DNA of 64,000 nucleotides from Actinomycetes bacterium. GTDB lineage: Bacteria > Actinomycetota > Acidimicrobiia > Acidimicrobiales > Ilumatobacteraceae. The notes beneath the pieces were generated by a model. That model was not told the DNA's origin, made no database searches, and saw only the letters and a program-made list of their open reading frames with translations. The position numbers were made by a program, and so were the translations under genes. The stretch lies in NCBI GenBank assembly GCA_025359865.1, contig JANYDH010000189.1, positions 1 to 64,000 on the forward strand, read 5' to 3'. Of this stretch, positions 718 through 47,215 are shown in pieces (position 1 is the first letter of the stretch; the number at the start of each line of letters is the position of its first letter).

Positions 718-2064
718 TCACTCGGCCTCTAAGAACTCCTTCAGTTTTTGGCTGCGCATCGGATGACGCAGCTTGGCCAAGGTCTTTGCCTCGATCTGGC
801 GGATGCGCTCACGAGTGACGCCGAACTCACGGCCGACATCTTCGAGCGTCTTGGCCTGACCATCGTCGAGCCCGAACCTCATCCGGACGATCTCTTGCTC
901 TCGTTCCGACAGCTCTCCAAGTGCCTGCTCGACGGCCTCGACGAGCATCGTCTTGGTCGCCACATCGGCTGGTGCGTCGACGGAGAGATCCTCGATGAAG
1001 TCGGCCAGGCTGCTGTCGTCTTCCTCACCGAGTGGTGAATCGAGTGACAATGGGTCTTGGCTAATGCGCAGGATCTCTCGGACGCGATCGGGCGGCAGCC
1101 CAACACGTTCGGTCAACTCATCGAGCGTTGGCTCACGCTCCAACTGTTGGTGCATCTGACGCTGTGTGCGCAGCACCCGGTTCATGCTTTCGACCATGTG
1201 TACCGGAATGCGAATGGTGCGAGCCTGATCCGCGATGGAACGAGTGATCGCCTGCCGGATCCACCATGTTGCGTACGTAGAAAACTTGAAACCCTTGGTG
1301 TAGTCGAACTTGTCGACCGCTCGCATCAAGCCGAGGTTGCCCTCTTGGATGAGATCGAGGAACTGCATGCCACGCAACGTGTATCGCTTGGCAATGCTGA
1401 CCACGAGCCGCAGGTTGGCCTGGATAAGTTCGCTCTTGGCGCGTTGACCGGCAGTGACCGAGCGCATGAGGCGGCGCTGTTCGATGGGATCAAGGTCGGG
1501 GCGATCCAACTCGGCCGCGGCAATGTTGCCTTCGTCGATCGCTTGCGCAAGTTGGCGTTCATCGTGTGCGGAAAGCAATTCCACACGGCCGATCTCCTTG
1601 AGGTACATCCGCACCGTGTCGGAGGTGCCTCCGGTATCGACGCCACGCTCCCCCGCGCGTCCCAGGCGACCCCGCCTACGCCGATCAAGCAGGCCCTCCG
1701 CGTCTTCGACCTGCTGATCCAATTCATCGGCCGTGAGAGCAGCTCCGTGCGCGCCGACGCCGACCGCGGCGTCGAGTCGCCCAGGCGGCGTGTCATCAGC
1801 CTGATCGTCGATTGGGTCGTCGATTGCATCATCGAGTATGTCGTCGAGTGCGTCATCGATGCGGATCTGATGAGATTCGAGTTCGGCATGCATGGCCACC
1901 AACACGTCGCCGTTCAACTCGACTCGCTTCAATACCAGCGCAATCTCGTCGGCATGGAGGACCCCTCGTGCGCGACCGCGCCGAACCAGGGCCTCCCATT
2001 CGATCGGATCAACTCCTTCGATCGGGAACATGCCCCCTGAGACCTGCACACCCCCGTCGGTCAC
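718..2064 (-). CDS. rpoD: primary RNA polymerase sigma factor (sigma-70, RpoD/SigA type)
   Basis: The 448-residue protein has all the hallmarks of a group 1 sigma factor. Region 1.2 contains [11 protein letters not shown], region 2 contains [12 protein letters not shown] and [17 protein letters not shown] and [14 protein letters not shown], region 3 follows, and region 4 contains [12 protein letters not shown] and the helix-turn-helix [20 protein letters not shown]. The N-terminus holds an acidic tract of DD repeats (about residues 68-91), like the acidic 1.1 region of actinobacterial SigA. The GTG start at 2064 overlaps the dnaG stop (GTGA), which indicates translational coupling in a macromolecular-synthesis operon. 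An in-frame ATG at codon 12 is an alternative start. Confidence 0.95.
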
Positions 2065-3806
2065 TCACGCTCCTCATTGTGTCGGTCGAGCCACCCTAGC
2101 AACACCTCTGCCGCGTCAACGGCTGTGGCGGGATCGTCGAGCGCCTCGAGTTGCAAGCGAGCATCGATATCGACGCGGATCGCGTCCGGGTCGGTGACGC
2201 GCACACGCCGTGCGAGTTCACGTCGAACGGCCGCAGCGATGAGGTTGCAGGCCTCCGGAAAAGGGTCTGCATCAAAATCGGCAACAGCAGCACGTTCGAG
2301 CATCTCGCGGGCCTCCGGGTCGGCGAGTTCGATCGCAACCGGGATCGAGCCATTGGCTTGCGCTATGGCGAGGAACGCCCGGCGTGCCACCTCGTCGACA
2401 AAGAGCGGCTCGATCAACCACGCTGCGATGGCATCCCAGCGCTGCAACAGCAGCGCCACGGCGACGTACTCGGCGTTCTCGGACGACCCAACATGGCGCC
2501 GCTGCGCCACCCTGATCACGGGGCGCGAACCCCCTCGCTGAGCGACGGCCATCAGATCATTGACCGGTAGTCCAACCCGCAGCGCTACCTCTCCGGCGTA
2601 CAACTTGCGGACGTCGACGTTGGGATGCTCGTTGACCACTGCCATCGCATCCTGTGCGGCTCGGGCCTTGTCCTCCGGTGTGCGCAACGCACGTCCGGCC
2701 CACACCCGCTGGAGCCGAAAGCCGAGAAACGGAAGTGCGTCGTCAACAGCGACGCGCAGCGCACCGGGGTCGCTCACACTGATCTCGCCAGGGTCTTTCC
2801 CATCGGGGAACCGGGCGACGCTGACCTGTACCTGATACTTGTCCTCCCACTCGTAGAACTTGGCGGCGGCACCTTGACCAGCGCTGTCGGCATCGAAGGC
2901 CAGCACCACCCGGTTGGCGAAACGCTTCATCATTCGGACGTGTTCTTCGGTCAGGGCTGTTCCGCACGTGGCCACGGCTCGCTTAAGACCGGCACGATGA
3001 AATCCGATCACATCGGTATAGCCCTCACACACGATGATCTGGTCGGATGCGACCACGTCGGCTTTTGCCCAGTTCAATCCGTACAGCGTCTTCGACTTCG
3101 CGTAGATGGGTGTCTCAGACGAGTTCTTGTACTTCGCCGGATCGCTGGACCCCGGCAACACCCGGCCACCGAAGGCAACCGGATCGCCAGTGTCGTTGTA
3201 GATCGGGAACATCACCCGAGCCCGAAACGCGTCTTGAACACGGTTGGCCTTGTTCGTAAAGGCAAGGCCGATCTCGCGCATGATGTCGACCGAAATCCCG
3301 AGATCACGACTCATTGCATCCCAGTCGTCGGGTGCCCATCCAAGCCGGAACGCCCTGGCCGTGTCACCGGCCAGACCGCGTTGGCGAAGGTAGTCACGTG
3401 CCGGGCGCGCGTCGGCGGAGTGGAGCAGACGCTCGTGGTACCAATCAACCGCGCGGCCCATCGCCTCGATCTGCTTCTTACGGTGCAGGCGGTCGCGCCC
3501 TTCGCCACCTGTGGTGTAACGCAGTTGGATGCCGGCCTTGGCGGCTAGGTGCTCGACGGCCGCGACAAAATCGACGTGTTCGATCTCCTGGATGAACTTG
3601 AAGACGTCACCCGAAGCCTGGCATCCGAAACAGTGATAGCGGCCGGTCTCGTCACGCACGTTGAACGACGGCGTAGCCTCGCCATGGAACGGGCACAATC
3701 CCTTCCAGCTCCGCCCGACACGTTTGAGTGCGACGTACTGTTGGATGACATCGGCGATGGAGACGGTCTCCCGCAGACGCTCGAGATCCTCGTCGACGAT
3801 GGCCAC
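2061..3806 (-). CDS. dnaG: DNA primase DnaG
   Basis: A 581-residue primase. The N-terminal CHC2 zinc-binding domain shows [11 protein letters not shown] and [11 protein letters not shown] (about residues 38-65). It is followed by the DnaG catalytic core and a Toprim domain with [17 protein letters not shown] and [17 protein letters not shown]. The C-terminal part would be the DnaB-interacting region. The start is GTG at 3806, 24 bp downstream of the terC stop. The 3' end overlaps rpoD by four bases. It makes RNA primers at the replication fork. Confidence 0.96.
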
Positions 3807-9572: not shown

Positions 9573-9624
9573 CCGACGTTTGGCGTTGGGTTGTTGTCAA
9601 TGACAGCCAAACGCCAACAGTCGG
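9573..9624. repeat. stand-alone palindrome of the TTTGGCGTTGGG repeat family
   Basis: An imperfect inverted repeat starts CCGACGTTTGGCGTTGGG and ends CCAAACGCCAACAGTCGG, with GTTGTCAATGACA at the centre. Its arms match the terminal inverted repeats of the longer elements at 36766 and 45190. It lies 15 bp after the M50 gene stop and may also work as a terminator. See the findings on the repeat family. Confidence 0.75.
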
Positions 9625-31921: not shown

Positions 31922-32888
31922 CGCCCACATGGCTGACGCGGCCTCCACGCTTCGCGATGCGCCCACCCTGTGGGTGGTCAGTCCGATGTTGCACGACACC
32001 AAATCGCTCATCCGACTGCGCACCGAGACCGCAACGGCGTGCGCTGGCGCTGGCATCATGTGGCCGATTCGTCACCTGGTCGTCGACGACTCTGCCGGCA
32101 CCGACCATGACATCGTGTGTCTCGCTCCGCTCGACAATGTCGAGATCCTCACCCCGCCATTCAATCTCGGACACCAACGCGCGATCGTGTTCGGCCTTCG
32201 TCACCTTGCTGCGCGTCTCGGCCCCGACGACATCGTGGTGACCATGGATTCCGACGGCGAAGACCAGCCGGACGATGTGCCGAGATTAGTGGCAGCGCTC
32301 GAAGCCGAACAGGTTCCGCTCGCGCTCGCGCTGCGTACGAAACGGTCAGAACCCTTCCGCTTCCGGATGATGTACCTCGCGTTCCGACTGCTGTTCAGAG
32401 TGATGACCGGCACCACGGTGAAGTCCGGCAACTTCGCTGCGCAACGCGCACCCTCGTTGCAGGCGACGATCGACCATCCCAGTTTTGATCTGTGCTATTC
32501 GTCCACACTGCTCGCTCTTCGCCGACCGACCGCGTCGGTACCATGCGCACGCGGTCACCGATTCGCCGGTGTATCGAGGATGAACTCGTATGCGCTCGTG
32601 GCGCACGGCATGCGAATGCTTCTGCCGTTCTCGGAACGGATTGCAGTGCGAATGATGGTGGTAGCCGCCGCGATGTTCACCACAATGAGCACGTACCTCG
32701 TGCTGCTCGGCCTTGGCGTGTTCGGCGAACGGCCGGGCGCCACGGCGATCACCCCGCTGGTCGCGATCGTCGCGGTGTTCCTGGCCAGCTTCATGGGGTT
32801 CGTCGTGCTGTTCTCGAGCTTCGCGCAGTCGTCGGCCATTGCGATGAAGGGAATTGGCGTGCCCGCCCCAACCGGTCAGGGGTCGTGA
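31914..32888 (+). CDS. family 2 glycosyltransferase with C-terminal membrane helices
   Basis: A 324-residue GT2 protein. The N-terminal LWVVSPMLHD is followed by HLVVDDSAGTDHD, FNLGHQRAIVFGLRHL and the VVTMDSDGEDQPDDV acidic motif, as in DPM1/Arn-type enzymes. Two hydrophobic segments near the C-terminus (MMVVAAAMFTTMSTYLVLLGLG and LVAIVAVFLASFMGFVVLFSS) anchor it. I chose the ATG at 31914; a second ATG five codons later is equally possible. Its stop overlaps the next start as GTGA. The frame is open much further upstream through the methyltransferase gene, which is shadow. Confidence 0.82.
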   Translation: MTDAHMADAASTLRDAPTLWVVSPMLHDTKSLIRLRTETATACAGAGIMWPIRHLVVDDSAGTDHDIVCLAPLDNVEILTPPFNLGHQRAIVFGLRHLAARLGPDDIVVTMDSDGEDQPDDVPRLVAALEAEQVPLALALRTKRSEPFRFRMMYLAFRLLFRVMTGTTVKSGNFAAQRAPSLQATIDHPSFDLCYSSTLLALRRPTASVPCARGHRFAGVSRMNSYALVAHGMRMLLPFSERIAVRMMVVAAAMFTTMSTYLVLLGLGVFGERPGATAITPLVAIVAVFLASFMGFVVLFSSFAQSSAIAMKGIGVPAPTGQGS

Positions 32889-34885
32889 ACCACACCGAAC
32901 CGTCCGTCTCGCAACCGCAGGAGCCGGGCCCCGGTCGTGCTGTTCGAGCGGTGATCATCGCGATCGTCGTGCTGCCGATCGTGGCGGCCGTCGCGCGCGC
33001 TCTCGTCCACCACTGGTTCCCCATCGGCGACGACGCGCTCCTGTACATCCGTGCCAGGGACGTGTTCACCGCACATCACCCGTTGCTCGGTTCGTGGACG
33101 TCGGCATCGCTCAGCATCGGTGTCGACGTCAACAACCCCGGTCCGATCTATGCCGACCTAGTGGCACCGTTTGCACACGTTTTCAGTGCCGGCCCGGGCG
33201 CTGCACTTGGGGTGGGCACCATCAACATTGCTGCCGTCATCGGCATCTCCGTGGCGTCTCGTCACATCGGTGGTTGGTCGATGCAGCGCTGGTTCCTGCT
33301 GGCATCGGCGGCGTTGTGCTGGACGATGGGCAGCGAACTGCTCTTCGACATCTGGCAGGCCCACGCGCTGTTGCTCACGTTCCTGCTCTATCTCGTTTTG
33401 CTGATCGGACTGTCCCAGGGACGCTCGCGTTGTGTCCCCTGGGCGGTCGCCATCGCATCACTACTGGTGCAAACGCACATCAGCTACGTGTACATCCTGG
33501 CCACACTCACCCCGGTGGCCTTGCTGCTGTCCTGGCACGATCGACATCGGCTCACACGGGCTGGCGTGATCAGCGGCCTTCGGTCGCGCACCGGGGTCGT
33601 GTCGGCCGCCGTACTGATCCTGCTTTGGTCGCAGCCGGTCATCGAGCAACTGTTCGGTGAAGGCCAAGGCAACCTGGCACGACTTGCGACCAACTCAGGG
33701 GGTGGTGACCTCACCGTCGGGGCACGCAACGCGACCAAGATCGTTGCCGCACTGATCGCACTTCCACCCTGGTGGCTGCGCAGCGGCTTTTCGACTACCG
33801 TCCCGATCACGCGACTCACGGACAGCCCGGACGGCCCACAGTTGGTGATCCAGGGTCTTCCCAACGGCATCCTCGCCGGATTCGCTCTCGTCGCGCTCGT
33901 CGGTCTGCTCGTCCTGGTTGCGGTGGCGTGTCGACGCATCGGAGCCACGATCCAATCGAATGCGTGCGCACTTGCTGCGTCGGGCGTCGTGCTTGCGGTC
34001 GGATGCCTCGCCGTGCTCACCGTCGGCAGGGTTGGGCTCGCACCACATCACGTTCGTTGGATCTGGACGTTGTCGGTCTTCACCCACATCGTGCTGATCT
34101 GGAGCGCGCTCACGGTTGCCGTCCACTACGTTGGCCGACCGCTCTGGCGGCGAATCGCCACGCCGGCAATCCTTGTCGCCACCACCGCATTCTCGGCGGC
34201 CAACGTGCCGTATTTCGCGCAGCAGGAGGGGCCGGTGGCGTTCTACGGTTCGATGGCAGCTCTGCGCGAGATCTTCCGCCAGCTCGAACCGCTGCGGGCC
34301 GAAGCGCCCATTGTGTACAACACCTCCAACCTGCGTGTGTTCGAGCCGTACAGCTCGGCGGTGATGATGCGACTGCAAGAACTCGGGATCGAGTTTCGGG
34401 TCACCGACCCGGTCATGGTCCGTCAGCTCGGCAACGGTCGCAAGGCGAGCGGTGACGAGACCACGTCGATCATGCAACTGGAAGGCTCCGACGCACTGCT
34501 GTACGACGGCCCGGGCTGTCGGTTCGCAATCGCCGACGGCGTATCAGACTCGGAGGCAGCCGTTGCCTCCAACGCAGCAGAGTTGCTCACCGCGGGGCTG
34601 ATCGACGGCTTGGTCACGGTCGACCCGTCGATGCTCTCAGCCGATGAGCAGACCCGGTACGCCGCTGCAGGCACCGGCGACGTTGTGGTAGCCCGAAGGC
34701 TGGTCTACGAAGGCTTCGTGCAGCGGTGGACCGACGCCGGTGCTGCGGACATCGCTCCTACGTTGGTCGATCAACTGGCCAAGGCTGGGGGCGTTGCCAA
34801 CAACGCAGCGATCCGCTCCACATTCGATGCGATTGACGACTGGGTGGTCTCCACGTACGCACTCGTCGCCACCAGTTTCTGCTGA
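32885..34885 (+). CDS. large membrane protein, probably GT-C-like
   Basis: A 666-residue protein from a GTG at 32885. After a first helix (VIIAIVVLPIVAAVARAL) there is a loop WFPIGDDALLYIRARDVF with adjacent acidic residues, reminiscent of the catalytic first loop of GT-C transferases. About ten more helices follow to residue 440. The rest (from PYFAQQEG) is an exported soluble domain. I do not recognise a specific family. It is last in the envelope cluster and coupled to the GT2 gene, so it may be the transferase using that enzyme's product. The stop codon lies inside the palindrome at 34882. Confidence 0.72.
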   Translation: MNHTEPSVSQPQEPGPGRAVRAVIIAIVVLPIVAAVARALVHHWFPIGDDALLYIRARDVFTAHHPLLGSWTSASLSIGVDVNNPGPIYADLVAPFAHVFSAGPGAALGVGTINIAAVIGISVASRHIGGWSMQRWFLLASAALCWTMGSELLFDIWQAHALLLTFLLYLVLLIGLSQGRSRCVPWAVAIASLLVQTHISYVYILATLTPVALLLSWHDRHRLTRAGVISGLRSRTGVVSAAVLILLWSQPVIEQLFGEGQGNLARLATNSGGGDLTVGARNATKIVAALIALPPWWLRSGFSTTVPITRLTDSPDGPQLVIQGLPNGILAGFALVALVGLLVLVAVACRRIGATIQSNACALAASGVVLAVGCLAVLTVGRVGLAPHHVRWIWTLSVFTHIVLIWSALTVAVHYVGRPLWRRIATPAILVATTAFSAANVPYFAQQEGPVAFYGSMAALREIFRQLEPLRAEAPIVYNTSNLRVFEPYSSAVMMRLQELGIEFRVTDPVMVRQLGNGRKASGDETTSIMQLEGSDALLYDGPGCRFAIADGVSDSEAAVASNAAELLTAGLIDGLVTVDPSMLSADEQTRYAAAGTGDVVVARRLVYEGFVQRWTDAGAADIAPTLVDQLAKAGGVANNAAIRSTFDAIDDWVVSTYALVATSFC

Positions 34886-34933
34886 CTTTTGGCGTTGGGC
34901 TGTCATTGACAGCAGCCCAACGCCAAAAGTCAG
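34882..34933. repeat. near-perfect 52-bp palindrome of the TTTGGCGTTGGG family
   Basis: Two 21-bp arms (34882-34902 and 34913-34933) are perfect reverse complements beginning CTGACTTTTGGCGTTGGG. The ten bases between them can themselves fold with the neighbouring CTG into CTGTCA-T-TGACAG. The palindrome contains the stop codon of the upstream gene and ends ten bases before the candidate vapB operator. The arms match the ends of the elements at 36766 and 45190. It could act as a bidirectional terminator. Confidence 0.85.
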
Positions 34934-34942
34934 CCAATTCTT

Positions 34943-34979: not shown

Positions 34980-35174
34980 GTGAGCAAACACCTCATCGAC
35001 GTTGATGACCATGCGCTCAGCGCTGCTCGCGCCGAGCTCGGCACCACCACGATCAAGGACACTGTCAACGAAGCGCTCCGGCGGGCAACGAGCGAGCGTT
35101 CCAAACGCGTCCACCGGGCTCTCGATGTGTTGGCCGGAGCCGATCTCGAGGACCGGGAGCAGGCGTGGCGCTAA
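34980..35174 (+). CDS. vapB: VapB-type antitoxin
   Basis: A 64-residue protein starting (GTG) MSKHLIDVDDHALSAARAELG, followed by TTTIKDTVNEALRRAT. This is the short beta-strand plus helix pattern of Arc/VapB-type DNA-binding antitoxins. The C-terminal half is charged and helical and would wrap the toxin. It overlaps vapC by ten bases. It should neutralise the PIN-domain RNase and repress its own promoter at the GATATA motifs upstream. Confidence 0.88.
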   Translation: MSKHLIDVDDHALSAARAELGTTTIKDTVNEALRRATSERSKRVHRALDVLAGADLEDREQAWR

Positions 35175-35578
35175 GCCATCTGGTAGACACAAGCGTGCTG
35201 ACCCGCCTGGGCCGCCCGAGCATTCGTGACGTGATCGAGCCGATGGCACGGGCAGGGCAACTCGCTCGCCCCGGGATCTGCGACCTGGAGATTGGCTATT
35301 CCGCCCGCAACGCTGATGAGTGGGATCGCCTCCTCGGTGCGTTGGACGCCTTCGACGCTGTCGAGACGAACGCAGCTCATGTCGCCCGCGCCATGCAGGT
35401 GCAGCGAATGCTGGCGGCGCGAAGCCAACGTGGACGCAAGCTCGCCGATCTGCTCGTGGCCGCTGCCGCCGAAGCGCTCAACCTGACGGTGCTCCACTAC
35501 GACGCCGACTTCGAGCACATCAGCGCGGTCACCGGCCAAGCGCACCAATGGGTCGTACCAGCAGGCACTATCGACTGA
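35165..35578 (+). CDS. vapC: VapC-type PIN-domain toxin ribonuclease
   Basis: A 137-residue PIN protein with the acidic catalytic set visible: D8 in LVDTSVLTRL, E42 in ICDLEIGYSA, D95 in RKLADLLVA and D113/D115 in LHYDADFEHI. Nothing suggests inactivation. The start is GTG at 35165 within the end of vapB. VapC toxins cut specific tRNAs or rRNA; the target here is unknown. The pair sits right after the palindrome at 34882 and before the oxidoreductase gene. Confidence 0.92.
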   Translation: MALSHLVDTSVLTRLGRPSIRDVIEPMARAGQLARPGICDLEIGYSARNADEWDRLLGALDAFDAVETNAAHVARAMQVQRMLAARSQRGRKLADLLVAAAAEALNLTVLHYDADFEHISAVTGQAHQWVVPAGTID

Positions 35579-36765: not shown

Positions 36766-37230
36766 GACCTTTGGCGGTGGGTTGTCATTGACAGGTTGTC
36801 GCAAAGTGCGGGTGAGGTTGACGGTACCCGATCCCGATCCCGATCCCGGCCGTGCTGTCGCGCTGCAGCGTGAACGTTCGTTGCGTGACAGGCGGGCGTG
36901 GTGGAAGTCTGCACCAGCGCCCACGACGGCTGTGCGGGCAGGATCGCGTCGACTTTCATGTCGCCAGCCCCGATAACTCGACGCGACTCCTTCCGGAAAG
37001 CCGTAGCGGGCAGGATCGCGTCGAGTTTCAGGTCGCCAGCGCCGATAACTCGACACGACTCGGCACCGCAACAACGGGTTGGTCCGGCGGGCGGGCTGTG
37101 AGTCGATGACGTCGCACCGGCTTGTGCGGCACAAGCACGAGTTCAGCAACGACCATGACACCGGTGCCAACAACACGACCAGACGGCCAATCTCACCCGC
37201 CACACCCCACCCGCAACTTGCGACAGCCTG
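36766..37230 (+). mobile_element. non-autonomous repeat element, copy A
   Basis: The left end GACCTTTGGCGGTGGG continues into TTGTCATTGACAGG and TTGTCGCAA. The right end CGCAACTTGCGACAGCCTG is the inverted counterpart but stops there, so the last 25 or so bases of the right repeat are missing. Inside are two hairpin units (36934-36990 and 37006-37061) starting 72 bp apart, with arms TCGCGTCGA and TCGACGCGA in the first. GATCCC tandem repeats lie near 36828. The whole element aligns end to end with the reverse complement of the copy at 45190. Short open frames inside have no protein-like features. No transposase is encoded. Confidence 0.75.
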
Positions 37231-37337
37231 CGAAATCCAGGAGTTGTTCACAAGGCTTGGTCGCGGCTTCGGTCCAAAATGGATCAGCAATGCGCCGGTC
37301 CGCCGGAACGGCACCGACACTGGCAGACTCGGCAACC

Positions 37338-38216
37338 ATGAGCACACGTCTGGCAGGTACTGGCATCTGGAGTGGCATGTTGCGGTACGGCGACCCGGGC
37401 CAGATCGCGGCGGCTGCCACCGAACTGGAAGCGCTTGGATACTCCGCATTGTGGATTCCCGACGTCGGTGGTGACCTGTTCGGTCCGCTTGCGAGCTTGC
37501 TCGCAGCAACGACCACAGCGACGATCGCAACCGGCATCCTCAATGTCTGGATGCACACGCCCGAGGAGACGGCTACGGAACACACGCGCCTCACGGCCGA
37601 GCACGGACCGCGCTTCCTGTGCGGCATCGGCATCAGCCACCGTCCGTTCATCGACCACGTGAACGCACCCGGCACCTACCAGAGACCGGTGGAGACGATG
37701 GCGAGCTACCTCGATGGGCTCGATGCCGCACCCACGCCGCTCGCTGCCGGCAATCGACTCATCGCTGCACTCGGCCCGAAGATGCTCGAACTCGCCCGCA
37801 CCCGGACCGCCGGCACACACCCGTATCTGGTGACGCCGGAACTCACCGCCAAGGCGCGCGCTGGCATCGGACCGGATGGTCTGGTGGCCAGCGAATTGGG
37901 TGTCGTCCTCGAAACCGATCCCACCCGGGCACGGGAGATCGCCCGGTTGCATCTTCGGACGTACCTCGGGTTGCCGAACTACTCGAACAACTGGAAGCGG
38001 CAGGGCTTCACCGACGATGACATCGCCGATGGTGGCAGTGACTGGCTCGTCGACGCTCTCGTCGCCTGGGGTGACGAGGCGGCCATCGTCGCCCGGGTGC
38101 AGGAGCACCGCGACGCGGGCGCCGACCACGTGTGTGTCCAGGTGCTCACCAGCGACCCGACGGCGTTGCCGGTCGACGAATGGCGAGTGTTGGCGCCAGC
38201 GCTGGTGACGGCGTGA
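37338..38216 (+). CDS. F420-dependent LLM-class oxidoreductase, MSMEG_4141-like (TIGR03620 type)
   Basis: A 292-residue luciferase-like protein. TGIWSGMLRYGDPGQ, LEALGYSALWIPDVGGDLFG, TIATGILNVWMHTPEE and RFLCGIGISHRPFID fit the MSMEG_4141 group of probable F420-dependent enzymes. The start is the ATG at 37338. The open frame extends 72 codons upstream, into the end of repeat element A, and that part should not be annotated. No good ribosome binding site is visible. Its promoter may lie in or next to element A. Confidence 0.87.
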   Translation: MSTRLAGTGIWSGMLRYGDPGQIAAAATELEALGYSALWIPDVGGDLFGPLASLLAATTTATIATGILNVWMHTPEETATEHTRLTAEHGPRFLCGIGISHRPFIDHVNAPGTYQRPVETMASYLDGLDAAPTPLAAGNRLIAALGPKMLELARTRTAGTHPYLVTPELTAKARAGIGPDGLVASELGVVLETDPTRAREIARLHLRTYLGLPNYSNNWKRQGFTDDDIADGGSDWLVDALVAWGDEAAIVARVQEHRDAGADHVCVQVLTSDPTALPVDEWRVLAPALVTA

Positions 38217-38312
38217 TCACCGACCTGATCCGGACGCAGCGATGCCCAGAACTGCTCCCAGTCGAACGTTGCCGTAGACGCCTCTGACTCGGTCAAGTCG
38301 TGGTTGTGGGGG
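38217..38312. other. gene-free segment upstream of the antitoxin remnant
   Basis: Between the LLM gene stop and the ParD-like remnant I see no convincing gene. A short minus-strand frame starting TTG near 38296 (TESEASTATFDWEQFW) stays open into the LLM gene. It resembles nothing I recognise and may be part of the decayed toxin-antitoxin locus. Confidence 0.3.
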
Positions 38313-38470
38313 TCACGCGTCAGTGCCGAACGCCTGGACGCGGAGCGAGAGGATCAGGTCTTCGGTGACCACTCGTCCGTCGCCGGATCCGAGTCCGTCG
38401 GCGATCAAATCGCGCCACGAACTCGAGCCACGATGTACTCACGCAACGATTCCGGCAGGGCAACGCTCAT
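38313..38470 (-). pseudogene. decayed ParD-like antitoxin
   Basis: From an ATG at 38470 the minus strand reads MSVALPESLREYIVARVRG, the start of a ParD/CopG-type antitoxin, and hits a stop (TGA) after 21 codons. In the neighbouring frame the sequence then resumes as WRDLIADGLGSGDGRV and EDLILSLRVQAFG, like a ParD C-terminus, ending at 38313. The middle helix (the usual SEYVRELI region) is missing. A frameshift plus a short internal deletion therefore broke the gene. No ParE-like toxin is visible beside it. Confidence 0.45.
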
Positions 38471-38624
38471 CGTGTTGCGACTCACAAGCCCAGTATGCAA
38501 GTGCTATCAACAGTTGTCACCTTGCTGAACGACTCCCGCAACCCGATCGATTCTTCGGCGGCGCTGAGAACGGTCTCGTTTCGCGGACTGGCCCAGTTGT
38601 CACACCCGTGGTGTACAAACAGGT
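38471..38624. other. upstream region of the helicase gene
   Basis: 154 bp without a gene. TTGTCACACC followed by GTGTACAAAC lies just before the helicase start but the spacing does not fit a standard promoter. I see no LexA-type operator. Confidence 0.3.
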
Positions 38625-41516
38625 GTGGCCATTTCATGTGTGTACTGCGGCGGCAGCCATGCCGACCCAACAGGAGTCCGGGCGTGCTGGCAGCGCACCG
38701 AGGCGGGCGACGACCGACTACCGGCTGCATCCACTGCTGCTCCCTCAGCGGCCGCGCCGATCATGGCCGTCGATGTCCACCATGAACCCTTCCAGCTGGA
38801 GACCCTGGCGATCGCAGCTCATCCGTTCGGCCGTACCCTCGTCATCCGTCCAGGGCAACAACGTCCGGCTCAGTGGGACTGCGCCGCTCGGCGCCCGATC
38901 ACCATGGCCGACTTGGTCGATCCGGAATCCGCCATCGCCGAACTGCGTACCGAGGCCGAGCAGCGACGGTCGATCATCATCGAACTCGACGCCGACGTTG
39001 CGGCGATTTTGGCGACCGCGCAAACAACGCACGAAGCCCCTTCCACCCTCGGCCCGCACTTTGAGTTTCTGATGTCCACCCTTGCGCATCTGGTGTTCTC
39101 CAACGCGATCGATGCCACGGGTCCATGTGCGATCGACTGGCCAGTGCGCCGCCGGGCGCTTGAACTCGGCGCATCGCCGGTAACAGACGGCCGGGGCGAT
39201 GTCGTGTTGCCCGACGGCACCCGCGTCTGGCTCGACTGCGGTCCCATTCGTTTCACACCTCCTATCGCCGGCGTCGCCGTGCTACACCGCGTCGTGGTGG
39301 AGCACGGTTCACTCACACCGTTCGGCTCCAACGACACCAGCGCCGACTTGGCGCCCGACCAACTGGCAGCAGTGATGCACGAGGGTGGGGCGGCGCGCAT
39401 CATCGCCCCGGCCGGAGCCGGCAAGACCCGCGTGCTCACCGAACGTGCCCGCCATCTCTTGCACCACTGGCACGTGCCCGCCGGTGCCGTCTGCCTGGTG
39501 GCGTTCAACAAGCGCGCTCAAGAAGAGATGCAGGCGCGCACGACCGATCTTCGCGGGCTCCAGGTGCGCACGCTCAATGCCATTGCGCTTGCCATTGTCA
39601 ACGGCAGTGCGCCGTTCGCCCGGCAAGAGCGGCGCTTTCAGACCATCGACGAAGGCGAGGTGCGGCGGATCATCGGCAGACTGGTGGCCTTCCCGCGCAA
39701 GCGCAATGCCGACCCCGTGGCCACCTGGATCGAAGCGTTGTCGATCGCCCGATTGGGTCTTCGCTCAGCCGACGATGTCGAGGCGATGTACCAGGGCGAA
39801 GTCGACGGATTTGCCGACGTGCTGCCCCGATACCGCCATGAGCTCGACCGCGCCAAACAACTCGACTTCGATGAACAGATCCAACGCGCGATCGAGGTAC
39901 TGCTCACCGACCACACCGCTCGAGTCGCGGCCCAGCGGGCATGTCGGATCATGCTGGTCGACGAGTTTCAAGACCTCACGCCTGCGCATGTGTTGCTCGT
40001 ACGGCTGCTCGCCGGCCCCGACGGCGCAGTGTTCGGTGTTGGCGACGATGACCAGACGATCTACGGCTACAACGGGGCCGACCCCGGCTGGCTGATCGAG
40101 TTCGAGCGGCTCTTTCCGGGTGCCGGCGATCATCCTCTCGAGGTCAACTACCGCTGCCCGAGCGACGTCGTGGCCGCTGCGGCCACGCTGCTTTCTCACA
40201 ACACCCGACGGGTTCCGAAGCACATCCGGGCGGATCACGCCCAACTCGGCCTGACTGTCGAACCGACTGGCAGCGCAGTCGCGACCACCCTGCGAATCGT
40301 TCGTGATGCGGTGCAGTCGGCGATACCCACGAGCGACATTGCCGTGCTCACGCGTGTCAACTCGCTCTTGGCGCCGGTGCAGGTCGGGCTCGCGCAGATG
40401 GGCGTCGCCACCACCGGTGGGGTGGGGCGCGAGTTCATCGAGCGCACTGCGGTCAGGGCTGCGCTCGCCTGGTTGCGGCTGGCCATCACCGACGAACAAC
40501 TCGATGCCGACGACTTGGCCGAGGCGCTTCGCCGCCCCTCACGCCCGATGCATCCCAACATCGCCAAGTGGGTCGCCGAGCAACGTTCGGTCGAAGGCCT
40601 ACGTCGCCTGGCGGGACGAATCACAACTGAGCGCGACGCTCAGCGGGTCGGCGAGTTCACCGACGACATCGAACGGCTGCAACGCATGGCGCGAAGCCAT
40701 GGCACCACTGCAGGCATGTTGGGCGCGCTGCGCGATTCGATCGGTCTGGCCACCAGCATCGCATCACTCGACACCCATCGCCGTGGGATGAACCGGGCCG
40801 CACAGAACGACGACCTCACCGCCATCGCTCAACTTGCCGAGTTGCAACCCGATCCACGATTGTTCGAGGGGTGGCTACGGCAATGGGTCAGCGGTTCCTG
40901 GCAAGCGGGAGGCGTCACGCTCGCCACCGTGCACCGGGTGAAGGGCCAGGAATGGCCGCTGGTGATCGTCCATCAGGCCGACGACGACCAGTTTCCACAT
41001 CGCCTGGCCGACGACATAGAAGAGGAACGCCGCGTGTTCCACGTGGCGATCACCCGCTCCGCCGCCCGACTGCACATCGTCGCCGACGGCACTCCCTCAC
41101 CGTTCATCGCCAACCTCACGAACGAACCGACCAGTCGCCGCCAAGCGACCACCGCATCCGTCACCGGCGCCACCGCCAAAGACACGCCCACCGCCAAAGA
41201 CACGCGAACCGGCGGAGTTTCGAGCGCGCGTGCCACTGCGGCCCCGAAGCAGTCACCGGGGGCCAAGCCGAACCGCGAGCTCACCGGAGCACAGTCGGTG
41301 CTGTTCGAACGACTTCGATCGCTGCGCCGTGAACTGGCTGCCGGCAAGCCTGCCTACACGGTCTTCCCCGATTCCGTGCTCTACGACATTGCGGTCGAAT
41401 GCCCCACCACCTTGGCCGTGCTCGGCCGTATCAAAGGCATCGGTCCGAGCAGACTCGACCAGTACGGATCCGCAGTGCTGGCCGTGGTCGAGGAGGCCGC
41501 GCCCACCAGTACCTGA
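38625..41516 (+). CDS. UvrD/PcrA-type superfamily 1 DNA helicase with N-terminal Cys motif and HRDC-like C-terminus
   Basis: A 963-residue protein. Helicase motifs in order are APAGAGKTRV (Walker A, 261-270), LVDEFQD (444-450), GVGDDDQTIYGYNG (about 471-484), NYRCPSDVVAAA, TLATVHRVKGQEW and EEERRVFHVAITR. The first 250 residues are not helicase. They open with CVYCGG, then H12 and C21, a possible zinc-binding knuckle, followed by an unassigned region. The last 80 residues (LFERLRSLRREL, YTVFPDSVLYDIA, LGRIKGIGPSRLDQYG) resemble an HRDC domain. The GTG start at 38625 keeps the Cys motif. It is likely a 3'-5' helicase in repair or recombination. Confidence 0.88.
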   Translation: MAISCVYCGGSHADPTGVRACWQRTEAGDDRLPAASTAAPSAAAPIMAVDVHHEPFQLETLAIAAHPFGRTLVIRPGQQRPAQWDCAARRPITMADLVDPESAIAELRTEAEQRRSIIIELDADVAAILATAQTTHEAPSTLGPHFEFLMSTLAHLVFSNAIDATGPCAIDWPVRRRALELGASPVTDGRGDVVLPDGTRVWLDCGPIRFTPPIAGVAVLHRVVVEHGSLTPFGSNDTSADLAPDQLAAVMHEGGAARIIAPAGAGKTRVLTERARHLLHHWHVPAGAVCLVAFNKRAQEEMQARTTDLRGLQVRTLNAIALAIVNGSAPFARQERRFQTIDEGEVRRIIGRLVAFPRKRNADPVATWIEALSIARLGLRSADDVEAMYQGEVDGFADVLPRYRHELDRAKQLDFDEQIQRAIEVLLTDHTARVAAQRACRIMLVDEFQDLTPAHVLLVRLLAGPDGAVFGVGDDDQTIYGYNGADPGWLIEFERLFPGAGDHPLEVNYRCPSDVVAAAATLLSHNTRRVPKHIRADHAQLGLTVEPTGSAVATTLRIVRDAVQSAIPTSDIAVLTRVNSLLAPVQVGLAQMGVATTGGVGREFIERTAVRAALAWLRLAITDEQLDADDLAEALRRPSRPMHPNIAKWVAEQRSVEGLRRLAGRITTERDAQRVGEFTDDIERLQRMARSHGTTAGMLGALRDSIGLATSIASLDTHRRGMNRAAQNDDLTAIAQLAELQPDPRLFEGWLRQWVSGSWQAGGVTLATVHRVKGQEWPLVIVHQADDDQFPHRLADDIEEERRVFHVAITRSAARLHIVADGTPSPFIANLTNEPTSRRQATTASVTGATAKDTPTAKDTRTGGVSSARATAAPKQSPGAKPNRELTGAQSVLFERLRSLRRELAAGKPAYTVFPDSVLYDIAVECPTTLAVLGRIKGIGPSRLDQYGSAVLAVVEEAAPTST

Positions 41517-41536
41517 GAAGCGACAAGACTGACCGC

Positions 41537-42508
41537 ATGAACCACCACCTTGCGCCGCTCAGTATGATCGTGGCGATGACGATCCTCGCCGCGTGCGGCA
41601 GTGATTCGGCGAGCAGTGCCACCAGCATCACCGCCAGCTCCACCGCCACAACCACGCCGACGGCCGCTTCGACCCTTGCGCCGAGCACCACCGGCACACT
41701 GCCAACGTTGCCATCCGATTTGCCGCCCACCACTGAGGTGCCGTCGCCCACGTTGTCGCCGACCACAGCTCCACCCGTCACCGTTATGCCTGCGGTAACC
41801 GAGGCACCGCCCACAACCAGCCCTCCAGCTACTGAACCATCAACTACAGAGCCTCCAACAACGGTGTCGACACCCGGTAGCACGGTCCCCGGCGTTGGTT
41901 GCGCGGGGCCAACTTCGGTTCCGTCGGCTGCTACGAACGTCACCACGATCAGCGGTGACATCGACGGTGATACACATCCGGACACCGTCACCTCGTACTC
42001 GCTCGACGGAACCCCCCACGTTCATGTCACGTTGTTCACTGGTGGTAACAGCGACATCGAAGTCCCAATCGGCTTCGCCGACAGTGTGTCGATCAGCTTC
42101 GAAGACATCGACCATTCCGCGGGCGCAGAAGTTCCCCCGCCGGTCGCCGTGCTCGCGATCGGTGCAGGCAACGCCGGGAGCGCGTTCGCAGCATTCCTCA
42201 CTTTGACCCCGCAGTACTGCATCGCACAGTGGAGCCTCAATGGCCAGCCGTACTCCATCCGTATCTCGCAACAGGGTCCGTATACCGGTCTCGTCTGCGA
42301 TGGCGCTGCAGGCCACATCTTCTATTCGGTGGTCGAGGCGAATCAGCAGCCAGACACGAGTTGGCTCGCCACCTCGTCAGTGCTCACGCACAACTTCACC
42401 ACGGCGGTGCTCACCGCACAGCCATCGCAGACCGTCGCCGACAGCCCGAGCATCCCCCACGACTTCGGTGACATCGTGAACTGCGGCCACGCGCCGTTGT
42501 TCCCCTGA
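41537..42508 (+). CDS. secreted lipoprotein with Thr/Pro-rich linker, function unknown
   Basis: A 323-residue protein. The signal peptide MNHHLAPLSMIVAMTI leads to the lipobox LAAC (Cys at about residue 20). A Ser/Thr/Pro-rich linker of about 100 residues follows. The C-terminal domain has DIDGDTHPDTVTSYSLDG, an FG-GAP/VCBS-like calcium-binding pattern, and four cysteines. The ATG at 41537 lies 20 bp after the helicase stop. It is an exported, membrane-anchored protein; no enzymatic motif was recognised. Confidence 0.75.
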   Translation: MNHHLAPLSMIVAMTILAACGSDSASSATSITASSTATTTPTAASTLAPSTTGTLPTLPSDLPPTTEVPSPTLSPTTAPPVTVMPAVTEAPPTTSPPATEPSTTEPPTTVSTPGSTVPGVGCAGPTSVPSAATNVTTISGDIDGDTHPDTVTSYSLDGTPHVHVTLFTGGNSDIEVPIGFADSVSISFEDIDHSAGAEVPPPVAVLAIGAGNAGSAFAAFLTLTPQYCIAQWSLNGQPYSIRISQQGPYTGLVCDGAAGHIFYSVVEANQQPDTSWLATSSVLTHNFTTAVLTAQPSQTVADSPSIPHDFGDIVNCGHAPLFP

Positions 42509-42536
42509 CATCACCGATGACACGACCGAGTCGATA

Positions 42537-43589
<1,053 letters not shown>

Positions 43590-43645
43590 TCTGCCATCGT
43601 GTCACTTCCGGCTGTGACTGGGCGAGTGATCGGAGCGGGAGCGAA

Positions 43646-44098
43646 TCAAACTCGCTCGACCCGCGCCGCCCAACACCCTCTGGTCGCGTTGTGTACGTGC
43701 AGCTGCCGACTCGCCGGATCGCTCAGAAACCGTTCGATGGTGACAAGCAGGTCAGAGCCCGCGATGACTGCCGCATCGACCATCATCTCGTGCTCGTCGA
43801 AGGCTCTCACCGATAGCTGTCGTCCGGTCAATTGCGTCGGAAGTTCGGCTGAACTGCGATGAGCAACACATGGCACGCGATGGAGGAAGATCGGGCTTGC
43901 CGATCGATATGATGACTCGGTCGCAAACGGATCGTGCGAGACGAGGATCAGTTCCTCTCCGATCTTGGCGTCACACAGGCATTGTCGGCATGGATACCCC
44001 GGGTACTCATCTGCGACATAGACCGGGCCGCCACGGCGGCGCAACTCGTCGGCGATAGACGGGTCGATAGCAATGACGACGAACTCGGCGGTGGACAT
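43646..44098 (-). CDS. DUF1203 family protein
   Basis: A 150-residue protein with the DUF1203 pattern: YPCRQCLCDAKIGEELILV, SHDPF and SPIFLHRVPC, with conserved cysteines C37 and C40 in the CRQC motif. The C-terminal half contains DEHEMMVDAAVIAG. The function of the family is unknown. It follows the deacetylase in the same direction with a 56-bp gap and may be co-transcribed ahead of it. The ATG at 44098 is the only reasonable start. Confidence 0.82.
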   Translation of the reverse strand: MSTAEFVVIAIDPSIADELRRRGGPVYVADEYPGYPCRQCLCDAKIGEELILVSHDPFATESSYRSASPIFLHRVPCVAHRSSAELPTQLTGRQLSVRAFDEHEMMVDAAVIAGSDLLVTIERFLSDPASRQLHVHNATRGCWAARVERV

Positions 44099-44230
44099 GT
44101 CGCCCAGTGTGCTCCGCTGATGGCCGTCGCACTAGCGGGCTTCGGACACGGCGTAGGGATTGAGAGCGGGCATTCGGCTTTCCGCACGGGGTGACTCAAT
44201 CACGTGCACATCCAAGCCCCGCGACCGAGG

Positions 44231-44545
44231 TCAATCGAGTTCGAGGACGAGTCGCAGTCCATCGTTGAGGGCTACGAGTTCTTCGTGTGTCACGCGCCCA
44301 ACGAATTCGCCGAGTCGTTCGGGCACGACGGCTGACGTCTGCTCGATCAAAACATGAGTCTGTTCATCGTTGATCGTGATCGTCGGACGAAAGATTCGTG
44401 GTGGTGCAGACCGGGATGTGGGCGCCACGAGCACGGTCGACAGCATCAAATCATCGGACTGCACGATGACGGCGTAGCGACCCCCCTGCTGCTCACCTCC
44501 TCGCGCTCCACGCGCCGCTCGGAGTCGATGGATGTCACCATGCAC
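44231..44545 (-). CDS. mazF: MazF/PemK-type toxin endoribonuclease
   Basis: A 104-residue protein from a GTG at 44545 (VHGDIHRLRA). The MazF/PemK signature is seen as GEQQGGRYAVIVQSDD, STVLVAPTSRSA and THVLIEQTSAVVPERLGEFVGRVT, so it should be a sequence-specific mRNA interferase. The frame continues 19 codons upstream into the antitoxin gene but that part is shadow. It overlaps the antitoxin gene by 11 bases. The protein looks intact. Confidence 0.88.
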   Translation of the reverse strand: MHGDIHRLRAARGARGGEQQGGRYAVIVQSDDLMLSTVLVAPTSRSAPPRIFRPTITINDEQTHVLIEQTSAVVPERLGEFVGRVTHEELVALNDGLRLVLELD

Positions 44546-44771
44546 GCAGCTCGTCCATCTCCGAGAGCACCGTGCGGCTTTCAGCGAGGTCGTCTTCGTC
44601 ATGCATCAGGGCCAGCGATTCGATGTGCATTTGCTCGCGTCGACGGAGCCGCACGGCGTCGACGAGTGCCTGACGAATGGCGTCTGACGCGCTCGATCCG
44701 CTGGCCATCAGTTCAGCGAGGGCTCGTTCGGAGCGCTCGTCGGTACGAAAGTTGGTACCGGCATACGACAA
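44535..44771 (-). CDS. antitoxin partner of MazF (ribbon-helix-helix-like)
   Basis: A 78-residue protein starting at TTG 44771. FRTDERSERALAELM, SASDAIRQALVDAVRL and a charged C-terminal tail ending EMDELRAW fit a ribbon-helix-helix antitoxin. No in-frame ATG exists upstream, and the next (codon 22) would remove the DNA-binding strand, so the TTG start is preferred. Two copies of CATACGAC (44762-44769 and 44773-44780) flank the start and may be operator half-sites for autoregulation. Confidence 0.75.
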   Translation of the reverse strand: MSYAGTNFRTDERSERALAELMASGSSASDAIRQALVDAVRLRRREQMHIESLALMHDEDDLAESRTVLSEMDELRAW

Positions 44772-44860
44772 CCATACGACGTGAGGTAAGACACTTCAAC
44801 CACGTGACACGGTACGAATCAGCCGGACAACTGAGCACCACTGATACGACGGAATTCCCC

Positions 44861-45189
44861 GACGTTTGGCGTTGGGCTGTCATGGACAAGCTGTCGCAAA
44901 ATGTGGTTACGGTGTGGCGGCACCCCGTCCCGACCTCGCTGATGTGAGTGGTGTGGCGAGCTCGACACGTGGAGGCACGTGTGCCTACGTAGCGACACGT
45001 GCCTCCACGTGTCGCCGCGATCAGCGATTCGAACTCGCCACGGCGCAGACCCGGTCCCCAGCTGACTTCCTCTCAGCCGCGCGTGCCACCACCTCAGCCC
45101 GCCGAGCGACAGCCACGGGCGAAGTGACGAACACAACGCGCGAAAATGCCATCTCGTTCTGCACTTCGCGAATCCACGTCGCACCACCC
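44861..45189. repeat. partial repeat element, copy C (one end, different interior)
   Basis: It begins GACGTTTGGCGTTGGG and continues into CTGTCATGGACAAG and CTGTCGCAAAA, matching the left ends of copies A and B. Its interior is unrelated and no matching right end is seen before copy B starts at 45190, so copy B may have inserted into or replaced its end. A very strong palindrome lies at 44963-45014. No credible gene is present in this part. Confidence 0.6.
44963..45014. repeat. 20-bp perfect inverted repeat with CACGTG motifs
   Basis: Arms CGACACGTGGAGGCACGTGT (44963-44982) and its exact reverse complement (44995-45014) are separated by 12 bases that contain TACGTA. The arms hold ACACGTG-type sub-palindromes. 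It is one of the most stable hairpins in the window. It may be a protein-binding site, a fold of the repeat element, or a terminator between divergent mazEF and the region to the right. Confidence 0.85.
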
Positions 45190-45689
45190 GATCTTTGGCG
45201 TTGGGCTGCTGCCAACAGGCTGTCGCACAATGCTGTGTGGTGGTGTCGCGGGTGAGGTTGGCCGTCTGGTCGTGTTGTCGGCAACAGTGTCATGGTCGTT
45301 GCTGAACTCATGGTCGTGCCGCAAAAGTCGGCTCAACATCGGCGACTGACAGCCCGCCCGCCGGGCCTACCCGTTGTTGCGCTGCCAAGTCGCGTCGAGT
45401 TATCCGGGCTGGCGACATGAAAGTCGACGCGATCCTGCCCGCAACGCCTTTCCGGGAGGAGTCGCGTCGAGTTATCGGGGCTGGCGACATGAAACTCGAC
45501 GCGATCCTGCCCGCACAGCCGTCGTGGTCACTGATGCAGACTTCCACCACACGCGACTGTCATGCAACGAACGTTCACGCTGCAGCGCGACCGCACGACC
45601 GGGATCGGGACCCGGATCGGGACCCGGTACCGACACACTCCATCCGCAAGTTGCGACAACCTGTTGACAACAACCCAACGCCAAAGGTC
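45190..45689 (-). mobile_element. non-autonomous repeat element, copy B
   Basis: A 500-bp element with both ends intact. The left end is GATCTTTGGCGTTGGG, then CTGCTGCCAACAGG and CTGTCGCA. The right end, read inward on the minus strand, is GACCTTTGGCGTTGGG, then TTGTTGTCAACAGG and TTGTCGCAA. These are terminal inverted repeats of about 38 bp. Two internal hairpin units (from 45388 and 45460) are again 72 bp apart, and a GATCGGGACCCG repeat lies near 45600. It aligns along its length with copy A in the opposite orientation. No clear target duplication was seen. It lies 111 bp before the amidase start. Confidence 0.8.
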
Positions 45690-45799: not shown

Positions 45800-47215
45800 A
45801 TGACCACCTCCGATCTGTTCCACCTGTCGGCAATCGACGCGCTCGCCCGCTTCCGTAGCAAGGATTTATCGCCGGTGGAGCTGCTCGACGCGCTGATCGA
45901 ACGGATCGAGGCGCACGAGCCGACAATCAACGCGGTCTGTGATCGCCGCTACGACGAGGCGCGTCGAGAAGCAGAAGCCTCCGCCTCGCGCTACGCCGGC
46001 AACGGCAACGCAGCACGGCCGCTCGAGGGGCTGCCGGTGGCGGCGAAGGAAGAACAGCCGATGGCCGGGCGTGTGAACTCGTTCGGCTCGTTGATCTATG
46101 CCCACAACGTGGCCACCGAATCCCATCCCGTGATCGAACGAATCCAAGATGCCGGTGGCATCGTTCACATTCGCACCACCACGCCCGAGTTCAGTTGTGC
46201 CGGATTCACCCACAGCCGCATCTGGGGCGTCACCCGCAACCCGTGGAACACTGACTACACGCCGGGTGGATCTTCTGGTGGTTCCGGCGCAGCCTTGGCT
46301 GCCGGATATGCGCCGCTTGCCACTGGTTCCGACATCGGTGGGTCGATCCGCATCCCTGCATCGTTCTGCGGGGTAGTGGGATTCAAAGCACCGTTCGGCC
46401 GTGTGCCCGCAATGCCACCTTTCAACCTCGATCAGTACTGTCACGACGGCGTGATGGCGCGAACTGTGGCCGACTGCGCATTGCTGACGAACGCCATCAC
46501 GGGCAGGCACCCACACGACATCGCCTCGCTCCCCGACCCCCCGCAACTGCCTCTCGGCGCAGACTCGATCAGCGGCATGCGGATTGCGCTGTGCATGCGC
46601 CTCGGCGATTTCCCGCTCGAACCGGAGATCGAGGCCAACACTCGACGCTCGGCAGCAGCGCTCCAGGCTGCGGGAGCGACTGTTGTCGAGGTCGAATTGC
46701 CGTGGACGATGGAGGCGATCTACGCCGCAGCGCAGGCTCACTTCGGCACGATCTTCGGACCATCGGTGGGTGCCGAACTCGCGGACAACGCCAACCTGCT
46801 CACCACCTATGCACGGGCGTTTGCCCAGAACTTGTTGTCGTCGAAGTTGGGGTTCGTCGAAGGATTGACCCTCGAAGGCCAGATCTACCGCCCGCTCGGC
46901 GAACTGTTGAACGAGTTCGACGCGTTGATCTGTCCCACGATGGGGTCGCGAGGCTTCCCTGTCGGCGAGGACTACGTGAGCACCACGTGCACCGTCAACG
47001 ACGTGCCGCTTGCGAACTACATCCTCGGCGCGTTCACACTTCCGTTCAACATCGCCAGCCGTTGTCCCGTGATCTCGGTACCGTCAGGCGTGGCCGACAA
47101 CGCAGTGCCGACCGGCGTGCAGATCGTCGGGCGCACCTACGACGACGTCACGACGTTCCGTATCGCCCACGCCCTAGAAGCGGCAACCGGAGGCTTCGCT
47201 CATCCGGTGATGTGA
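45800..47215 (+). CDS. amidase signature family protein
   Basis: A 471-residue amidase. The catalytic triad regions are Lys in GLPVAAKEEQ, the serine-rich GGSSGGSGAALAAG and the nucleophile region GSDIGGSIRIPASFCG. ALICPTMGSRGFP and later conserved segments follow. The ATG at 45800 is preceded by AAGGA at a good distance. The frame is open 33 codons further, into the end of copy B, which is not credible. The substrate (amide, amino-acid amide) is unknown. Its promoter must lie in the 110 bp after the repeat element or in the element. Confidence 0.92.
   Translation: MTTSDLFHLSAIDALARFRSKDLSPVELLDALIERIEAHEPTINAVCDRRYDEARREAEASASRYAGNGNAARPLEGLPVAAKEEQPMAGRVNSFGSLIYAHNVATESHPVIERIQDAGGIVHIRTTTPEFSCAGFTHSRIWGVTRNPWNTDYTPGGSSGGSGAALAAGYAPLATGSDIGGSIRIPASFCGVVGFKAPFGRVPAMPPFNLDQYCHDGVMARTVADCALLTNAITGRHPHDIASLPDPPQLPLGADSISGMRIALCMRLGDFPLEPEIEANTRRSAAALQAAGATVVEVELPWTMEAIYAAAQAHFGTIFGPSVGAELADNANLLTTYARAFAQNLLSSKLGFVEGLTLEGQIYRPLGELLNEFDALICPTMGSRGFPVGEDYVSTTCTVNDVPLANYILGAFTLPFNIASRCPVISVPSGVADNAVPTGVQIVGRTYDDVTTFRIAHALEAATGGFAHPVM

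What the first reader, a model, noticed from the sequence alone, without database searches (positions are those of the whole stretch)
36766..45689. Two ~0.5-kb non-autonomous elements with hairpin ends, in opposite orientation
Copies at 36766-37230 and 45190-45689 align end to end once one is reverse-complemented. Both start with GACCTTTGGCG or close variants followed by TTGTCA..TGACAGG and TTGTCGCAA. Copy B has both ends; copy A lacks the last part of its right end. They encode no transposase or credible protein, carry paired internal hairpins and sit between genes. This fits a MITE-like or REP-like family that must be mobilised in trans. Being inverted, the pair could also allow inversion of the 8 kb between them. 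I know of no described family with these ends.
Basis: partly seen in the sequence, partly recalled or inferred. Interest (0 to 1): 0.85.

Follow-up and report, generated by a model that had tools for sequence, protein, structure and literature searches.

The report
Jumping DNA nested in hairpin repeats
The two copies belong to a large family of short, gene-less jumping DNA pieces, many of which have landed at the same point in the loop of a second, hairpin-forming repeat; what looked like the elements' own hairpin ends are halves of that split hairpin.

Summary
There are two repeats. (1) "S" is a palindrome of about 54 bp (23-bp stem, 8-nt loop in one window copy). Its arm motif TTTGGCGTTGGGYTGT hits 180+176 times in this 5-Mb MAG, against 3+1 for the reversed control. 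(2) "I" is a non-autonomous transposon (MITE) with inverted repeats CAGGCTGTCGCAAAATG (88+83 hits, control 0) and a 4-bp target duplication. I sits in the S loop (CA-TTGA-CA): 24 of 30 ends fetched by the I motif alone have the S arm outside. Of 8 innermost copies outside S, 4 have exact 4-bp duplications. An 89-bp MITE with the same ends occurs in three Actinomycetes MAGs, with exact duplications in 12 of 14 copies. The "GACCTTTGGCG" ends are thus split target. Copy A (36792-37230) is a whole I with an S half on one side only; copy B is part of a 777-bp I (44887-45663) in an S. Both motifs abound here and are absent, but for one near-match, from four congeners. Duplications inside S do not covary, and no transposase was found. 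Closest precedent: ISs that insert into REP palindromes.

The parts
36766..36791 (+). left half of a split S palindrome (arm + CATTGA) next to copy A
36792..37230 (-). copy A: complete I element, 439 bp, ends CAGGTTGTCGCAAAGTG / CAACTTGCGACAGCCTG; flanking 4-mers TTGA / CGAA do not match
   Evidence: aligns to copy B in reverse orientation
36934..37061 (.). two 56-bp direct repeats at 72-bp spacing inside copy A
44861..44886 (+). left half of the S palindrome split by the 777-bp composite
44887..45663 (+). composite I element (Z body + inner S half + Y body), 777 bp, flanking 4-mers TGGA / TTGA (one mismatch)
   Evidence: similar composites at C194, C104, C136, C3
44887..45189 (+). Z body of the composite, with a hairpin of 26-bp arms at 44963-45014
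45216..45663 (+). copy B proper: Y body, 448 bp, end to end
45388..45520 (.). two 61-bp direct repeats at 72-bp spacing inside copy B
45664..45689 (+). right half of the split S palindrome
34881..34934 (.). intact (empty) S palindrome: 23-bp stem, 8-nt loop CATTGACA; overlaps the stop codon of the ORF 32492-34885
   Evidence: DNA fold -29.5 kcal/mol, z -11.1
9573..9624 (.). second intact (empty) S palindrome, less perfect
   Evidence: z -4.56

Best explanation
Two repeat families are nested. S is a short REP-like palindrome scattered through the genome. I is a MITE family (inverted repeats CAGGCTGTCGCAAAATG, 4-bp target duplication) moved in trans by a DDE-type transposase that was not found. 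I inserts preferentially at one point, the 4-bp TTGR (YCAA on the other strand) in the S loop, in either orientation, so S splits into two halves that mimic long inverted-repeat ends. One I variant (Z-W) itself carries an S, and an IS630-type MITE also carries an S; both produce further nesting. Shown: the inverted repeats, 4-bp duplications outside S, the constant insertion point, empty S sites, both orientations, abundance here and absence from sampled congeners. Inferred: the DDE mechanism, that the transposase itself prefers the S loop, and that copy A's mismatched flanks come from recombination or deletion.
For: Of 144 non-redundant I ends in the stretches held, 115 have the S arm outside, 110 of those at exactly 22 nt (sample enriched for S because many stretches were fetched by S motif). 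In the first 30 of 171 places returned by the I motif alone: 24 of 30. Empty S sites: 38 non-redundant in the stretches held, 18 exact ones in the whole genome. I outside S: 4 of 8 innermost pairs have exact 4-bp duplications (GAGA, AATA, TGTA, CCCA), and the 871-bp composite at C107 has CAGA/CAGA. Same ends on an 89-bp MITE of three other MAGs: exact 4-bp duplication in 12 of 14 copies; no S arm in the stretches around the nine TL1-3.bin48 copies nor in that genome (G080). Both orientations of I relative to S outside the five known flank classes: alpha side L 6 / R 8, beta side L 7 / R 8. S folds with TTGA at the loop centre.
Against: Within S the two flanking 4-mers do not covary: exact match 8 of 27, permutation mean 8.2, P 0.64, so the duplication inside S is not proved by pairing; 12 of 27 differ at one base, 7 at two or more. 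Some composites have two halves of the same S side (C194), which one clean insertion does not give. Of 8 pairs outside S, 4 lack exact duplications. No transposase with these ends was found, so trans-mobilisation is unshown.
Confidence: 0.82

Rival explanations
1. S plus I is one transposon with long (about 45-bp) inverted repeats, and S-only copies are internal-deletion remnants of it (deletion between the TTGACA repeats of the two ends).
For: S looks like the product of a deletion between the TTGACA repeats (read by eye); flanking 4-mers inside S do not covary; composites of the 777-bp type have S arms at their outer boundaries.
Against: I copies without any S arm have exact 4-bp duplications right at the CAGG end; the same ends close an 89-bp MITE with 4-bp duplications in MAGs, one of which was checked and has no S arm; I orientation relative to the S sides is mixed outside the known flank classes.
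Confidence: 0.1
2. I entered S only once or a few times, and S+I units then spread as a whole by the S mobilisation route or as passengers of the IS630-type MITE.
For: Near the IS630-type MITE flanks the orientation is nearly fixed: delta foot with beta side L 10, R 1; gamma foot with alpha side R 9, L 3 (a further 6 delta and 6 gamma ends are other or unassigned). Co-amplification therefore explains part of the copies.
Against: Outside the five flank classes both orientations and several bodies (L, R, Z ends) occur about equally on both S sides; empty S sites with the same flank families exist.
Confidence: 0.08
3. S is a GTAG-type REP spread by a RAYT (IS200/IS605-like) and I is a by-product.
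For: Short palindrome, high copy number, asymmetric conserved feet.
Against: No Y1_Tnp (PF01797) match in the 96.6%-complete genome; no GTAG in the consensus feet.
Confidence: 0.05

Closest known systems
Insertion sequences that target REP palindromes: ISPsy8, ISRm22, ISPpu9, ISPpu10, ISPa11 (PMC1525189, abstract and Results section read; IS1397 and ISKpn1 seen only as titles in a reference list)
   Same: fixed insertion point in a dispersed palindrome, at the symmetry axis for ISPsy8 and ISRm22; short target duplications (3 and 6 bp there); three of nine ISRm22 copies have imperfect duplications, attributed there to recombination
   Different: here the inserted element is a transposase-less MITE with its own ends and a 4-bp duplication, in an Actinomycetes-related MAG; a minority of copies lie outside the palindrome, whereas that paper reports all copies in REPs for those ISs
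REPs, GTAG and CGTC super-families (PMC3733652, abstract and passages read)
   Same: short palindromes in high copy with conserved unpaired feet; some REPs are themselves nested in other palindromes
   Different: long stem (23 bp in one window copy), no GTAG in the consensus foot, no RAYT found; membership in the CGTC families was not tested beyond the feet
Bacterial MITEs, e.g. QMITE2 whose GTAG palindrome is a target of IS1111 (passages of PMC10969869)
   Same: inverted repeats, target duplication, no transposase gene, many copies; a mobile element and a REP-like palindrome nested in one another
   Different: ends CAGGCTGTCGCAAAATG; here the MITE is the inserted part and the palindrome the target

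Membership tests
MITE | terminal inverted repeats | tested here: met
   CAGGCTGTCGCAAAATG 88+83 hits vs 0 reversed control; 40 innermost non-redundant pairs
MITE | target site duplication | tested here: met
   4 of 8 innermost pairs outside S exact; 12 of 14 copies of the 89-bp relative; inside S inconclusive, 8 of 27 exact, no covariation
MITE | no transposase gene, small, multicopy | tested here: met
   eight ORFs in or across the window copies without Pfam family; innermost lengths 244-554 bp, composites to 871 bp
MITE | shares ends with an autonomous element | tested here: inconclusive
   PF05598 0 hits; PF01609 3 hits in this genome, 37 in three other MAGs; 30 of these 40 loci scanned, none with these ends; other transposase families not searched
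REP (GTAG type) / REPIN | short dispersed palindrome in high copy | tested here: met
REP (GTAG type) / REPIN | GTAG foot | tested here: not met
   consensus feet about GGCGAAAYCGCCCGACC and GGTCAGCCC
REP (GTAG type) / REPIN | RAYT transposase in the genome | tested here: not met
   PF01797: 0 matches; control rings in 5 of 14 genomes; the MAG is incomplete
IS630-type MITE (class 2 flanks, side finding) | end shared with an IS630-type transposase gene | tested here: met
   MITE end ...CAACTTCTGCGGCGCAGCACTAG matches the end of the C134 gene; a 79-aa piece of that gene hits DDE_3 PF13358 at E 1.8e-6, 28.3 bits, just under the 28.6 cut-off
IS630-type MITE (class 2 flanks, side finding) | TA target duplication | not tested
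   only the CTAG end was seen

The most novel reading that the evidence does not exclude
An undescribed transposase recognises an extruded hairpin loop as its preferred target, and REP-like palindromes serve as landing pads: a MITE and a palindrome family invaded one lineage together, and the MITE recruited the palindrome into its own body (Z-W), so that such a copy carries a new landing pad with it.
Probability: 0.3. Interest if true: 0.65.

Novelty: new variant of a known kind. Interest (0 to 1): 0.5.

Why it matters
It gives a large natural set of insertions (115 S-side ends in the stretches held) for asking how a transposon finds a hairpin loop, with empty and filled sites in one genome and four congeners almost free of both motifs. 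It also warns that inverted-repeat ends read from a few copies can be a split palindromic target. At least eight contigs of this MAG end in or within a few bases of copies, so the repeats help to fragment the assembly.

Tried and rejected
Rejected: REP/RAYT; inversion between the copies (collinear in congeners); S as near-precise excision scars of a long-end element (my own reading; dropped, kept as a rival); integron attC-like sites (considered from the GTTRRRY-like arm, recalled, not tested by a call). Searched without success for an autonomous partner: end pairs up to 3.5 kb apart in the fetched stretches (none of transposon-gene size except pairs spanning several copies) and the ORFs of C50:14330-17346 (no transposase recognised by eye); PF05598 in this genome; PF01609 in this genome and three MAGs holding the 89-bp MITE (40 matches; 30 loci scanned for these ends, none). 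One IS in FK2.bin64 with ends CAGGGCTCCGGACATA, a 4-bp duplication and a PF21804 transposase was seen; its relation to I is unproved, and that protein has no match in the stretches of this genome that I held. One viral contig pair spaced 865 bp has no matching 4-mers and lies over contig ORFs that were not family-searched; taken as chance. Plasmid collection: no match to copy B; phage collection not searched. Empty sites of copies A and B in congeners could not be read: both lie where gene order differs (second luciferase-like gene at 37320-38206 and amidase at 45869-47160 lie on other contigs in congeners). Papers: no hit for the letters of the ends or arm nor for Acidimicrobiia with miniature inverted-repeat; listings seen only as titles and abstract starts; the library is open-access only.
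Full report
Observation. The two stretches are copies of one another in opposite orientation (86%). Eight ORFs in or across them match no Pfam family, and Rfam finds only two tRNAs in the window. In the window's own genome (G000, a 4.99-Mb MAG in 219 contigs, 96.6% complete) the 500-bp query returns 86 match rows, with 40 of 283 first-look candidates scored. At least eight contigs end in or within a few bases of copies.

Two repeats, not one. Many occurrences face each other 8 nt apart and form a near-perfect palindrome, S: 18 places match it exactly in the whole genome, and 38 non-redundant ones at a looser cut-off lie in the stretches I held. The window has two intact S, 34881-34934 and 9573-9624. 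The first folds as DNA into a 23-bp stem with the loop CATTGACA (z -11.1; the second z -4.56) and overlaps the stop codon of the ORF 32492-34885. The second motif, CAGGCTGTCGCAAAATG, occurs 88+83 times with up to 2 mismatches, control 0.

Where the mobile element ends. Listing the CAGGCTGTCGCAAAATG-type ends with their outside showed that some have no S arm. Pairing the ends (innermost pairs) gives 40 non-redundant elements: 27 with S arms on both sides, 5 on one side, 8 on neither. Of the 8, 4 have exact 4-bp direct repeats (GAGA, AATA, TGTA, CCCA), 3 have two mismatches and 1 has three. Of the 5 one-sided ones none is exact. The 871-bp composite at C107, with no S arm outside, has an exact CAGA repeat; another composite of this kind, 794 bp at C58, has TTGA/TACA. 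The same 17-bp ends close an 89-bp MITE in three Actinomycetes MAGs (TL1-3.bin48, FK2.bin64, YF2.bin99), with exact 4-bp repeats in 12 of 14 copies, the other two differing at one base. The stretches around the nine TL1-3.bin48 copies hold no S arm, nor does that genome (G080). So the element, here called I, ends at CAGG and duplicates 4 bp.

Insertion into S. Of 144 non-redundant I ends in the stretches held, 115 have the S arm outside, 110 of them at exactly 22 nt. That sample is enriched, since many stretches were fetched by the S motif; among the first 30 of 171 places returned by the I motif alone it is 24 of 30. The 4 bases next to I are TTGA, TTGG, TCAA or CCAA in 88 of 115, which is the centre of the S loop, CA-TTGA-CA. 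I lies in S in both orientations: outside the five recognised flank classes the alpha side of S carries the L end 6 times and the R end 8 times, the beta side L 7 and R 8. Near the IS630-type MITE flanks orientation is nearly fixed (delta/beta L 10, R 1; gamma/alpha R 9, L 3; 12 more ends are other or unassigned), so part of the copies spread as passengers. Against the reading: inside S the two 4-mers do not covary (exact in 8 of 27, permutation mean 8.2, P 0.64). Mutation, gene conversion and recombination among copies could erase the pairing, as proposed for ISRm22 copies with imperfect repeats (PMC1525189, Results). The duplication inside S is therefore inferred from I outside S, not shown directly.

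Nesting. Window copy B is the right part of a 777-bp I (44887-45663) made of a Z body, half an inner S and the Y body, between two outer S halves with flanking TGGA/TTGA. Similar composites occur at C194, C104, C136 and C3; the one at C194 has two outer halves of the same S side, which a single insertion does not give. Class 1 copies have Z, then S or S+Y, then W, with I ends outermost where complete. Class 2 flanks end in ...GCAGCACTAG, the end of an IS630-like gene at C134 whose coding sequence lies in two frames (DDE_3 hit of a 79-aa piece just under the cut-off). Other copies hold remnants of an N-terminus of this kind. Of 30 loci returned with this end (37 matches in all), 26 have an S arm or a remnant of one directly at the inner side; the exceptions are three partial matches and the gene itself.

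Copy A (36792-37230) is a whole I with an S half only on the left; its flanking 4-mers TTGA and CGAA differ. In G001, G002 and G003 the gene to its left and the helicase further right lie on one contig in the same order, while the gene immediately right of copy A lies on other contigs in G001, G002 and G004. Recombination between I copies or a deletion would explain the half S; this is inference.

Distribution. With up to 1 mismatch the S motif is 139+140 in this genome and 0 in four congeners; of 80 relatives only four have a hit, one each. The I motif with up to 2 mismatches is 88+83 here, 1, 0, 0 and 0 in the congeners, and 10+9 in G080, 18 of those 19 being the 89-bp MITE; scattered single or double hits occur in other relatives at about the rate of the reversed control. 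Both repeats therefore seem to have expanded in this species' lineage, with one genome per species seen.

Mechanism. Most likely I is moved in trans by a DDE transposase that makes 4-bp staggered cuts and prefers the S loop. The transposase was not found: no PF01797, no PF05598, three PF01609 matches here without these ends. Other families were not searched, and multicopy ISs are often lost from MAGs (general knowledge). How S itself spreads is unknown; its conserved feet are asymmetric and no RAYT was found.

Comparison. ISs that enter REP palindromes at a fixed point are known (PMC1525189). A MITE doing so with these ends was not seen in the listings. S is REP-like but fails the GTAG and RAYT features. 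The finding is a new variant of a known kind.

Noticed in passing
L201/L221 (G000 C134:145-1256); L008, L028, L182, L185: An IS630-like gene in two frames with CTAGTG... ends, and a family of short derivatives with the same end that carry the S palindrome, several at contig ends.
   Followed up: partly
window 44963-45014: Hairpin with 26-bp arms, CGACACGTGGAGGCACGTGT..., inside the Z body, also in other Z copies.
   Followed up: partly
window 35165-35578: PIN-domain (VapC-like) gene about 230 bp right of the intact S palindrome at 34881-34934.
   Followed up: no
window 44231-44602: PemK/MazF-like toxin gene just left of the 777-bp composite, in a stretch (43.6-45.8 kb) without a match in the congener loci held.
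   Followed up: no
L351 (FK2.bin64), 859-3278: IS of 2420 bp with perfect 16-bp ends CAGGGCTCCGGACATA, 4-bp duplication ACTC and a PF21804 transposase, lying next to the end of a second ORF (158-910); possible relative of the missing mobiliser.
   Followed up: partly
G080, G199, G200 (TL1-3.bin48, FK2.bin64, YF2.bin99): 89-bp MITE with the same 17-bp ends in three MAGs; 14 copies seen.
   Followed up: partly
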